A stretch of DNA of 7,287 nt from assembly GCA_003535475.1 (NCBI GenBank), contig DOHC01000314.1, forward strand, positions 1 through 7,287, given 5' to 3'. Source of the DNA: Nitrospiraceae bacterium (GTDB lineage: Bacteria > Nitrospirota > Thermodesulfovibrionia > Thermodesulfovibrionales > UBA1546). Made by a program: the position numbers and the translations under genes. Every line of letters starts with the position of its first letter. Positions within the stretch are counted from its first letter, which is position 1. The notes under the pieces are model-generated. The model worked only from the letters and a program-made list of their open reading frames with translations, was not told the origin of the DNA and did no database searches. Positions 1,453 through 4,257 of the stretch are shown here, piece after piece.

Positions 1453-2337
1453 ATGGATATACATCACCTTAAAGTTTTTATATCTGTATTTAAAAATAGG
1501 AGCTTCTCAAAAGCGTCGGAACAGCTTAGTCTGACACAGTCTACCATAAGCAGTCATATAAAGGCTGTCGAAGAGGAGCTCGGCTGTAAACTCTTTGACA
1601 GGTTAGGGAGGACAATAATTCCTACGAAAGAAGCCGAACTTCTTTATCCCCGTGCTTCCGAGATAATAGAAAACCTTGAAGAAATCAAATCCGGCATCTG
1701 CCAGATTAAAGATGACATGGGTGGAGAACTTATAATTGGCGCAAGCACCATACCGGGAGCATATGTAATTCCATCCATTGTTTCAGAATTCAAAAGGAAA
1801 TATAAGGAAACATCTTTTCAGGTACTTATAGAAGACTCAAAAAAAATAACTGATATGGTGGCATGCAATGAATTGCTTCTCGGTATTGTTGGGGCAAAGA
1901 TGGAGAACAGAAAGATAGAATACTGTCCCTTTGTTGAGGATGAACTTATATTCATTTCTTCCCCTGAAGTCTTAGATAGAAAAACCATCTCCATGGAAGA
2001 CATAACCGGTGTGCCGTTTTTGCTGAGAGAAGAAGGTTCTGGTACAAGAAAGACGGTGGAGAGGCATCTCTCCGAAAAGGGCATCAGCGTGAAAGATTTA
2101 AATGTTGTTGCTGTTTTAGGCTCTACAGATGCCATGAAGGAAGCCATAAAATCAGGGCTTGGCGCTTCTATACTTTCCAGAGTCGCCGTAAGAGACGAAC
2201 TTAAGACAGGAATACTCAAGGAGGTAAAAGTAAAGGGGCTTGATATGACGAGAAGTTTTTATATCATCACTCATAGAAGGCGTACACTCCCGAAGAATTA
2301 TCGGCTTTTCACCGAGTACCTTAAAGGCAAATCATAA
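1453..2337 (+). CDS. LysR-type transcriptional regulator, probably the selenium-metabolism-associated subgroup
   Basis: The 294-residue product has standard LysR length and layout. An N-terminal winged helix-turn-helix covers about residues 1-60, with recognition region SFSKASEQLSLTQSTISSHI (17-36) followed by KAVEEELGCKLFDR. A periplasmic-binding-protein-like effector domain starts near GELIIGAST (91-99) and includes the REEGSGTR motif typical of CysL/CbbR-like members. Such proteins act as tetramers that bind dyads upstream of targets and respond to a small co-inducer. From memory, a LysR subgroup of this type is annotated as selenium-metabolism-associated and co-occurs with yedF; yedF is present two genes downstream, which supports the assignment. 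The gene starts 19 nt after acpS and has only a weak ribosome binding site (AAGTGA region at 1441-1446). The co-inducer is unknown. The selenium subgroup call is inference; LysR membership is secure. Confidence 0.9.
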   Translation: MDIHHLKVFISVFKNRSFSKASEQLSLTQSTISSHIKAVEEELGCKLFDRLGRTIIPTKEAELLYPRASEIIENLEEIKSGICQIKDDMGGELIIGASTIPGAYVIPSIVSEFKRKYKETSFQVLIEDSKKITDMVACNELLLGIVGAKMENRKIEYCPFVEDELIFISSPEVLDRKTISMEDITGVPFLLREEGSGTRKTVERHLSEKGISVKDLNVVAVLGSTDAMKEAIKSGLGASILSRVAVRDELKTGILKEVKVKGLDMTRSFYIITHRRRTLPKNYRLFTEYLKGKS

Positions 2338-2444: not shown

Positions 2445-3473
2445 ATGAAGGCGCTTCGATTTGTCTTTGTAACTGCGATAGTCTTTTCTCTTGCAGCATC
2501 TGCCTTTGCAGCAGGCGCCAAGGCAAGAGAGCGGAGCGCAGAGGTTACTGTTAATGTGGGTTTGCAGACCCCTGCAGAATCAAAAAATGTAAGGTTGTGG
2601 ATTCCCTATCCGGTATCAGACGAGAACCAGACAATTGAAGATGTAAATATTAAGGGTAACTTTTCAAAGAGCAGCATTTATAGGGATGGCAGATACGGAA
2701 ACATGGCGCTTTATGCCGAATGGAATGGTTCATCAAAGGAGAGGTTGCTGACTTACACTTTCAAGGTTAAACGGCGGGAGGTAATTAAAAAAGATTTCCC
2801 TAAAAAAGAATTATCTTTTTCAAAATACGAATTCAGAGAATATCTGACGGCAACGAGTTTCGGGCCGACAGATGGGAAAGTCAGAGCACTTGCGGAGAAG
2901 ATAACAAAGGGGGCAAAGACTAATCTTGCTAAGGCAAGGTTAATTTATGACTGGATTGTGAGCAATATGTATCGCGATCCGAATATAAAAGGGTGCGGCT
3001 TCGGTGAAGTGGACAAGCTCCTTGTTTCAATGGGAGGTAAATGCGGAGACATTCACTCAGTTTTTGTTGCCCTATCAAGGAGTATTGGTGTCCCGGCAAG
3101 AGAGATATTTGGAATACGCATACCAAAAGGCAAGGAAGGAGATATGACAAAGGCACAGCATTGCTGGGCAGAGTTTTATCTTCCGGGCTATGGCTGGGTT
3201 CCTGTTGATCCTTCTGATGTGAGAAAGGCAATGCTTGAGAAAAAGACGGACAGCTTAAATGAGGTTAAATCTCTTGTTGAATATTTCTTTGGCGCGGTTG
3301 ATGAAAGCAGGATTGCATATCAGTCAGGCAGAGACTTAATCCTTAATCCGCAGCAGAAAGAGGGGAAACTGAACTACTTTATGTATCCTTATGCAGAGGC
3401 GGATGGAAAAACATTAAATGAGGATCTGTTTGGATTCAATCTTGGATACAAGATAAGTTTTAAGGAGCTTTAG
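2445..3473 (+). CDS. Secreted transglutaminase-like (cysteine protease fold) protein
   Basis: This is a 342-residue protein with a clear Sec signal peptide: a basic start (MKALR), a hydrophobic core at about residues 6-18, and a probable signal peptidase I site after SAFA (residue 22). It should therefore act in the periplasm or at the surface. A beta-rich region (about 30-130) precedes a transglutaminase-like core. The catalytic triad is visible: Cys200 in GGKCGDIHSVFVALSR, His239 in AQHCWAEFYLPGYGWVPVD and Asp255 in VDPSD. The GVPARE motif just after the Cys helix is typical of the superfamily. Bacterial members are usually proteases, amidases or peptide-modifying enzymes; the substrate here cannot be told from sequence. 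The start has AGGAGG (2435-2440) 4 nt upstream of ATG. It follows the LysR gene and directly precedes an unusual tRNA, so it may be LysR-controlled. No selenium role is known to me for this family. Confidence 0.87.
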   Translation: MKALRFVFVTAIVFSLAASAFAAGAKARERSAEVTVNVGLQTPAESKNVRLWIPYPVSDENQTIEDVNIKGNFSKSSIYRDGRYGNMALYAEWNGSSKERLLTYTFKVKRREVIKKDFPKKELSFSKYEFREYLTATSFGPTDGKVRALAEKITKGAKTNLAKARLIYDWIVSNMYRDPNIKGCGFGEVDKLLVSMGGKCGDIHSVFVALSRSIGVPAREIFGIRIPKGKEGDMTKAQHCWAEFYLPGYGWVPVDPSDVRKAMLEKKTDSLNEVKSLVEYFFGAVDESRIAYQSGRDLILNPQQKEGKLNYFMYPYAEADGKTLNEDLFGFNLGYKISFKEL

Positions 3474-3478
3474 GAATA

Positions 3479-3575
3479 GAGGGGTATGGGACTGGCGTCC
3501 CGGCTGGTCTGCAAAACCAGTATTACGGTGGATAGAGTCTGCTGTGGTGGGTTCAATTCCCACTACCCCTCTCCA
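3479..3575 (+). tRNA. tRNA with selenocysteine-tRNA architecture but cysteine anticodon (GCA)
   Basis: The 97-nt gene encodes its own CCA (3573-3575). The acceptor stem has 8 bp (3479-3486 with 3564-3571), followed without gap by a 5-bp T stem (3547-3551 with 3559-3563) around loop TTCAATT. This gives the 13-bp 8/5 branch diagnostic of bacterial tRNA-Sec. The D stem has 5 bp, or 6 with a T-G wobble (3487-3492 with 3497-3502), closing a 4-nt TGGC loop. The anticodon stem (3503-3508 with 3516-3521, first pair G-T) closes loop CTGCAAA, giving anticodon GCA at 3511-3513. The variable arm is long: 3525-3532 pairs with 3538-3545, including three wobbles. The discriminator is T3572 (U73). Bacterial tRNA-Sec normally has UCA and G73; GCA and U73 are the main CysRS identity elements. 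The gene therefore combines a Sec scaffold with Cys identity. It starts 5 nt after the previous stop codon with no clear promoter of its own. It could be a minor cysteine tRNA or a recoded tRNA-Sec. Confidence 0.9.
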
Positions 3576-3654: not shown

Positions 3655-4257
3655 ATGCTCATAGATGCGAGAGGTCTTGGATGTCCGAAGCCTGTTATGC
3701 TGGCTGAAGATGCAGTTTCCAAAATAACCGAAGGAATAGTTGATATCCTTGTTGACAATGAGGCCTCTGTAGAGAATCTTTCAAGATTTGCAGCCAAAAG
3801 CGGTTGTTATTCCGAGGTAAAAAAACAAGATGACTGCTGGCGTGTAAAAATAGTGAAGGGTTATCCGTGCGAAATAAGTTCAGAGTCAAAAATTAAGAGT
3901 GGAGAGTTAGAAGAAAAAACAAGAAGGGACATTCTTCTTGTCATCGGCACAGATACGATGGGAAAAGAGGAATCGCTTGGCAAAGTGTTGATGAAGGGTT
4001 TTTTTGAGACAATGAAGGTAACTAAAGAAATTCCCCACACGATATTTTTTTTAAATGCAGGAGTGAAGCTGACCACCAGCAATGAAGATGTTATTCCTAT
4101 ACTTAAGGAAATCGAAACAATGGGAGTTGAGATATTTTCCTGCGGCACATGTCTGAAATACTATAATCTTGAATCTGAACTGAAAGTAGGATACCGCGGC
4201 ACTACAAATCATATTGTAGAGGGAATAAAGGACTTCCAAAAGGTTGTCTGGATATGA
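3655..4257 (+). CDS. yedF: Selenium metabolism protein YedF (TusA-like plus DsrE-like domains)
   Basis: The 200-residue product has two parts. Residues 1-70 form a TusA/SirA-like domain with the signature DARGLGCPKPV, where Cys10 of the CPxP motif is the persulfide-type carrier residue in TusA proteins. After a linker, residues 93-200 form a DsrE-like domain starting at LLVIGTDTMG and carrying C163-G-T-C166 followed by LKYYNLESELKVG. From memory, this two-domain family is annotated as selenium metabolism protein YedF and occurs in genomes with the selenium trait; its biochemical role is unproven, and sulfur or selenium transfer is inferred from the domains. The short E. coli protein also called YedF has only the TusA part. 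AAGGAG (3642-3647) lies 7 nt before ATG 3655. The gene follows the Sec-type tRNA by 79 nt on the same strand and converges with glyS 50 nt beyond its stop. No convincing terminator is visible between them. Confidence 0.92.
   Translation: MLIDARGLGCPKPVMLAEDAVSKITEGIVDILVDNEASVENLSRFAAKSGCYSEVKKQDDCWRVKIVKGYPCEISSESKIKSGELEEKTRRDILLVIGTDTMGKEESLGKVLMKGFFETMKVTKEIPHTIFFLNAGVKLTTSNEDVIPILKEIETMGVEIFSCGTCLKYYNLESELKVGYRGTTNHIVEGIKDFQKVVWI

What the first reader, a model, noticed from the sequence alone, without database searches (positions are those of the whole stretch)
3479..3575. Selenocysteine-tRNA scaffold carrying a cysteine anticodon (GCA) and cysteine discriminator (U73)
The fold is that of tRNA-Sec: 8-bp acceptor plus 5-bp T stem with no gap, extended D stem with 4-nt loop, long variable arm, and an anticodon arm nearly identical in layout to E. 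coli selC. The anticodon loop is CTGCAAA, one base from the opal-reading CTTCAAA, and base 73 is U, not G. Both changes point to cysteine identity, which makes a single sequencing error unlikely. Established background, from memory: Soll and colleagues described tRNA-Sec species with sense anticodons, Sec insertion at a Cys codon in Aeromonas salmonicida, and minor cysteine tRNAs that mimic tRNA-Sec. This one may be a Cys tRNA in a Sec body, or a tRNA that places Sec at UGC/UGU codons.
Basis: partly seen in the sequence, partly recalled or inferred. Interest (0 to 1): 0.93.

Follow-up and report, generated by a model that had tools for sequence, protein, structure and literature searches.

The report
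Cysteine tRNA in selenocysteine-tRNA body
This bacterial gene encodes a tRNA with the body of the selenocysteine tRNA but the anticodon and end base of a cysteine tRNA, and it is likely a backup that would insert cysteine where selenocysteine is normally encoded; tRNAs of this kind are already described, and this one lies beside selenium-metabolism genes.

Summary
Window 3479-3575 folds as an 8/5 tRNA-Sec body with anticodon GCA and U73; the Rfam tRNA-Sec model scores 55.6 bits, the ordinary tRNA model 32.3. It is no error: in 16 genomes of its family, 23 tRNA-Sec hits over cut-off split into 15 UCA/G73 and 8 GCA/U73, none mixed, and 19 of 30 base pairs change on both sides across 26 sequences. 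The genome encodes SelA and SelB. Six of seven family genomes with this tRNA also have selC; the exception is this incomplete assembly. The kind is known: selC*/tRNA-ReC (PMC7609411, PMC11415595). The described selC* form is 8/4 with a bulge; this one is 8/5. New in my calls: 17 of 43 genomes of its class carry it, contigs labelled Chloroflexota and Actinomycetes too, and it is linked to selenium genes (yedF within 1.5 kb in 17 of 62 loci, 0 of 69 controls; selB just downstream in 7 of 62). Most likely it brings cysteine to UGA codons through SelB; charging and decoding are untested. Sec at UGC/UGU is disfavoured.

The parts
3479..3575 (+). tRNA gene: tRNA-Sec body, cysteine identity bases (8/5 tRNA-ReC-like), CCA encoded
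3511..3513 (+). anticodon GCA
3572..3572 (+). discriminator base U73
3547..3563 (+). T arm with an uninterrupted 5-bp stem (no A51a bulge)
3655..4257 (+). yedF, selenium-metabolism protein; 79 nt lie between it and the tRNA
   Evidence: TIGR03527 203.8 bits, cut-off 110; TusA domain
2445..3473 (+). transglutaminase-like gene ending 5 nt before the tRNA, so the tRNA is likely co-transcribed with it (inferred)
   Evidence: PF01841 91.6 bits; spacing
1453..2337 (+). selenium-metabolism-associated LysR regulator (LysR_Se type)
   Evidence: NF040786 307.1 bits, cut-off 250

Best explanation
The gene encodes a tRNA with a selenocysteine-tRNA body and cysteine identity bases, which is likely charged with cysteine by CysRS and predicted to be carried by SelB to SECIS-marked UGA codons, so that selenoproteins would be finished with cysteine when selenocysteine is short. 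Shown by sequence: the 13-bp acceptor/T domain, long variable arm, GCA, U73, conservation and covariation, SelA and SelB in the same genome, UGA-containing formate dehydrogenase genes in relatives that carry the same tRNA, and linkage to yedF, LysR_Se and (elsewhere) selB. Inferred: charging by CysRS, SelB binding, G34 facing A at the third position of UGA, and the backup role. It works like the tRNASec-like tRNA-Cys (tRNA-ReC) class, in an 8/5 form.
For: tRNA-Sec model 55.6 bits against 32.3 for the general tRNA model. 15 UCA/G73 and 8 GCA/U73 among 23 hits over cut-off, none mixed; that search did not select on anticodon or base 73. 26-sequence alignment: 95.9% of cells paired, 19 of 30 pairs with double changes, 0 of 500 shuffles as high. 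Own genome: SelB 380.6 bits, SelA 629 bits. In 148 phylum genomes SelB (E <= 1e-70) is in 59, and in 16 of the 17 with the tRNA pattern; 15 of those 17 have the selC pattern. A selB match begins about 37-55 nt downstream of the tRNA in 7 of 62 named loci. In-frame TGA after DHCARL in five formate dehydrogenase genes of four tRNA-bearing relatives. U73 and GCA are the major Cys determinants and U73 alone confers Cys identity on minihelices (PMC9976931, passages). A 13-bp acceptor domain suits SelB, 12 bp suits EF-Tu (PMC11231383, one passage). The Desulfotomaculum nigrificans counterpart decodes UGA with Cys, delivered by SelB (PMC11415595, one passage).
Against: No charging or decoding data. 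The bacterial minor Cys determinants G2-C71 and C3-G70 are absent (A2-U71, G3-C70 here). Neither canonical selC nor a 7/5 tRNA-Cys was found in the window's own genome, which is only 66% complete with few tRNAs assembled; SelD was not searched. G155 carries the tRNA and selC but no SelB at E 1e-70 (8 of 12 candidates scored). 42 of the 43 genomes of the class have SelB, so co-occurrence is confounded by ancestry. 26 of 62 named loci show none of the queried selenium genes nearby. Of 16 formate dehydrogenase-type matches, 10 have no in-frame TGA. GCA pairs better with UGC/UGU than with UGA.
Confidence: 0.77

Rival explanations
1. A tRNA-Sec with a sense anticodon: serylated, converted by SelA, and inserting Sec at UGC/UGU, as reported for Aeromonas salmonicida.
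For: Same 13-bp body as tRNA-Sec, the length SelA needs (PMC11231383, one passage); GCA reads UGC/UGU; SelA present in the genome; the Aeromonas case exists (PMC11415595, one passage).
Against: U73 instead of G73 in 8 of 8 GCA copies of the family while all 15 UCA copies keep G73. A separate canonical selC is present in 6 of 7 family genomes with this tRNA. UGA is kept at the site examined in five formate dehydrogenase genes.
Confidence: 0.06
2. An extra cysteine tRNA for ordinary UGC/UGU decoding through EF-Tu.
For: GCA and U73 fit; no 7/5 tRNA-Cys was found in this fragmentary genome.
Against: The 13-bp acceptor/T domain is maintained with covariation, and EF-Tu prefers 12 bp (PMC11231383, one passage). 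Linkage to selB, yedF and LysR_Se. In L164 a 76-nt tRNA-Cys(GCA) and the 8/5 form lie on one contig.
Confidence: 0.12
3. A decaying or erroneous selC copy without function.
For: The variable arm differs among relatives, and in L108 the T stem is reduced to 3 of 5 pairs.
Against: Double-sided changes in all five helices; CCA, GCA and U73 kept in all 8 family copies, which were found without selecting on them; identity to family selC at most 72%.
Confidence: 0.03

Closest known systems
selC* tRNA-Cys (Mukai et al. 2017, as reviewed in PMC7609411; its section 6 read in full)
   Same: tRNA-Sec-like body, U73, mostly GCA anticodon; reported in Nitrospirae among other phyla; in some groups followed by a selB gene.
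   Different: Described as 8/4 with an unpaired A51a; this tRNA is 8/5 without a bulge. One SelB over cut-off was found in the (incomplete) own genome, no selB* duplicate. No cysS*: one cysS-type hit at E <= 1e-30 in each of 21 genomes.
tRNA-ReC of Desulfotomaculum nigrificans (Vargas-Rodriguez et al. 2018; paper not held; the name ReC is recalled; one passage about it read in PMC11415595)
   Same: GCA tRNA-Cys with tRNASec-like structure; reported to decode UGA with Cys, delivered by SelB and not interacting with EF-Tu.
   Different: Its stem lengths could not be checked; no locus labelled Firmicutes or Clostridia came up in my 8/5 pattern scan. Function of the present tRNA is untested.
Aeromonas salmonicida tRNA-Sec with GCA (PMC11415595, one passage)
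   Same: GCA anticodon on a tRNA-Sec.
   Different: Reported to insert Sec at targeted UGC codons; the present tRNA has U73 and sits alongside canonical selC in relatives.

Membership tests
tRNASec-like tRNA-Cys (tRNA-ReC) class | tRNA-Sec-like body with long acceptor stem and long variable arm | tested here: met
tRNASec-like tRNA-Cys (tRNA-ReC) class | Cys identity elements U73 and GCA | tested here: met
tRNASec-like tRNA-Cys (tRNA-ReC) class | host also has canonical tRNA-Sec and SelB (this as a defining feature is recalled) | tested here: inconclusive
   SelB and SelA in own genome; selC not found there (66% complete) but found in 6 of 7 family genomes with this tRNA
tRNASec-like tRNA-Cys (tRNA-ReC) class | charged by CysRS, delivered by SelB, Cys at UGA | not testable with these tools
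   needs biochemistry
selC* tRNA-Cys as described in PMC7609411 | 8/4 structure with A51a bulge | tested here: not met
   five uninterrupted T-stem pairs in 25 of the 26 aligned sequences, window included
selC* systems of Desulfobacterales | second CysRS (cysS*) | tested here: not met
   one cysS-type hit at E <= 1e-30 in each of 21 genomes; own copy is cut at a contig end and the own genome is incomplete
canonical tRNA-Sec (selC) | UCA anticodon and G73 | tested here: not met
ordinary 7/5 tRNA-Cys | 7-bp acceptor, short variable loop | tested here: not met

The most novel reading that the evidence does not exclude
The tRNA is the output of a selenium-sensing circuit: LysR_Se controls a transglutaminase-tRNA-yedF operon, so that under selenium shortage the UGA codon is switched from Sec to Cys in all selenoproteins at once, a codon-level counterpart of the archaeal switch between Sec and Cys hydrogenases. 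The 8/5 form would be a Nitrospirota-centred version of the system, shared with Chloroflexota and Actinomycetota.
Probability: 0.3. Interest if true: 0.8.

Novelty: new variant of a known kind. Interest (0 to 1): 0.45.

Why it matters
If it works as predicted, UGA is ambiguous in these bacteria: Sec when selenium is ample, Cys when it is not, by a G34-A3 mismatch that SelB and SECIS must tolerate. The link to LysR_Se, yedF and selB gives a concrete way to ask how cells choose between the two amino acids. It also warns that UGA selenoproteins in such genomes cannot be assumed to carry only Sec.

Tried and rejected
Sequencing error: rejected, since relatives keep both changes. General 7/5 class II tRNA: rejected by model scores. 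Obligate UGA=Cys lineage without selC: G022, G108 and G129 carry the tRNA and SelB, but no complete selC was found by pattern, Rfam or BLAST. I did not press this because G022 also has a full-length SelA and a 5' half of selC, and nine selC matches start within 600 bases of the first base of a contig, so assembly gaps are plausible; SelA of G108 and G129 was not searched. A group I intron in the split selC: suggested by eye, not supported (no Rfam intron hit at E 0.01, no 3' half within the 3-kb loci). A second selB* paralogue: the six tRNA-linked SelBs long enough for a tree form one clade with ordinary branch lengths, which does not tell a paralogue from a lineage's only SelB. A fixed operon: in G012 the 99% identical tRNA lies after acpS, with no LysR_Se, transglutaminase or yedF match in the 10.5-kb stretch fetched around it. 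Promoter-like sites were fewer than in shuffles (3 against a mean of 6.4); terminator-like sites were 5 against 2.5, none between the transglutaminase gene and yedF.

Pattern caveat: the 62 named loci and the 17 of 148 phylum genomes were found with a pattern that fixes GCA, T73 and the 8/5 spacing, so those features are not evidence there; the pattern also missed at least G108 and G129 (longer variable arm). One non-tRNA match (G154) was dropped by eye from the selC pattern genomes (57 to 56) before the counts. A 7/5 tRNA-Cys in a complete relative, and SelD, were not searched.

Full report
What is there. Window 3479-3575 (+) is a tRNA gene with an 8-bp acceptor stem stacked on a 5-bp T stem, a 6-bp D stem (one U-G pair) with a 4-nt loop, a long variable arm, anticodon GCA (3511-3513), U73 (3572) and an encoded CCA. 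Rfam tRNA-Sec scores it 55.6 bits against a gathering score of 47; the general tRNA family gives 32.3 bits.

It is real and conserved. A tRNA-Sec search of 16 genomes of the family, not selected on anticodon or base 73, gave 23 hits over cut-off. Fifteen have UCA with G73 (in 14 genomes) and eight have GCA with U73 (in 7 genomes: G000, G001, G004, G006, G008 twice, G009, G012); none is mixed. G013 has no hit over cut-off. Six of the seven GCA genomes also have canonical selC; the exception is the window's own assembly, 66% complete in 322 contigs. GCA copies are 79% identical to each other on average and at most 72% identical to family selC, so they are a separate gene, not a point mutant. Across 26 sequences (the window and 25 others found in Nitrospirota) RNAalifold returned the 8/5 fold; 95.9% of cells pair, 19 of 30 pairs change on both sides, and no shuffle or slid register comes near.

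Distribution. An 8/5, GCA, T73 pattern was found in 17 of 148 Nitrospirota genomes: 17 of 43 in the window's own class (nearly all its own order) and 0 of 105 elsewhere in the phylum, with none for the reversed control pattern. Of the 17, 16 have SelB (59 of 148 overall) and 15 have the canonical selC pattern, but ancestry confounds this. In named genomes the pattern gave 62 loci: 50 carry Nitrospirota-type labels (Nitrospirae, Nitrospira, Thermodesulfovibrio and the like), and twelve carry others: Actinomycetes or Thermoleophilia (3), Chloroflexota or Chloroflexi, Dehalococcoidia and Ktedonobacter (4), Obscuribacterales (1), or only 'bacterium' (4). These are record labels of MAG contigs, not placements of my own. 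In L108 and L159 the T stem is imperfect (3 and 4 of 5 pairs). G108 and G129 hold longer-armed copies that the pattern missed.

Machinery. The own genome has SelA (629 bits) and SelB (380.6 bits, 634-aa open frame) and a CysRS fragment at a contig end. No 7/5 tRNA-Cys was found among its assembled tRNAs. Of 16 formate dehydrogenase-type matches in six genomes, six contain an in-frame TGA. In the five that I examined (G009, G012, G022 and two of G006) it follows DHCARL, and the 48 bases from it fold into a stem-loop. The own fragment lacks that region, so UGA use in the own genome is inferred from its genus.

Selenium gene linkage. Five nt separate the tRNA from a transglutaminase-like gene upstream and 79 nt from yedF downstream; a LysR_Se gene lies further upstream. 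In the 62 named loci yedF is within 1.5 kb in 17: 15 downstream on the same strand, one just upstream (L142), one on the other strand (L111); 51 loci have that much downstream sequence. None of 69 control loci (flanks up to 1.5 kb around selC, selB, selA, cysS and tRNA-Ser, from other genomes of the order) has it; whether each control genome has yedF at all was not checked. LysR matched in 14 of 62, L142 only weakly (27% identity); of ten LysR neighbours sent to NCBIfam (nine of those 14, plus L196), all ten exceeded the LysR_Sec_metab cut-off. A selB match starts about 37-55 nt downstream in 7 of 62; two of these (L121, L151) are near copies and in L142 the selB frame is broken. On contigs labelled Chloroflexota the tRNA lies in selenium clusters with ORFs that I read as YedE- and DUF3343-like, names given by eye and not by a family search. 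Twenty-six of 62 loci showed none of the selenium genes that I queried, among them the three labelled Actinomycetes or Thermoleophilia, the Obscuribacterales one and L164.

Reading. U73 and GCA are the main Cys determinants, while the bacterial G2-C71 and C3-G70 are not met (PMC9976931, passages). A long acceptor stem favours SelB and weakens EF-Tu binding (PMC11231383 and PMC7609411, passages). A counterpart in D. nigrificans inserts Cys at UGA, delivered by SelB (PMC11415595, one passage; the primary paper was not held). The best explanation is therefore the same action here. LysR_Se is a candidate regulator of Sec genes, and its archaeal orthologue HrsM represses Cys-containing hydrogenases (PMC5322559, passages); a selenium-controlled Sec-to-Cys switch follows as a testable idea, not a result.

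Known or new. The class is known and was already reported in Nitrospirae (PMC7609411, section 6). The published selC* description is 8/4 with A51a; this one is 8/5, so I file it as a variant. I saw no report of the yedF/LysR_Se link or of the 8/5 form in what the searches listed (20 of 41 papers shown, 10 of 14; only the yedF search, bore on that link), and I read passages of a few of them only. The two primary papers are not held, so either may contain it.

Noticed in passing
L192 (G022:C5:10020-10059) and L191 (G153:C48:3595-3637): The 5' half of a canonical selC, ending just after the anticodon loop, runs into unrelated sequence; no 3' half within the 3-kb loci and no intron family hit. Possibly an integration junction in selC.
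   Followed up: partly
L193 (G000:C240:2825-2852): In the window's own genome a selC-like 3' end lies beside an ORF that looks like a tyrosine recombinase (read by eye), with a run of N next to it; perhaps an attachment-site remnant.
   Followed up: partly
L196 (G108) and L194 (G129): Copies of the same tRNA with an enlarged D arm and a longer variable arm, in genomes where no selC was found; LysR_Se lies just upstream in both by tblastn.
   Followed up: partly
L108 and L110: One MAG (VGWY01) holds two copies of the tRNA, each followed by its own selB within about 55 nt.
   Followed up: partly
L072 1859-2042 (-): A cobalamin riboswitch (79.6 bits) starts about 70 nt downstream of one of the two copies in G008.
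   Followed up: no
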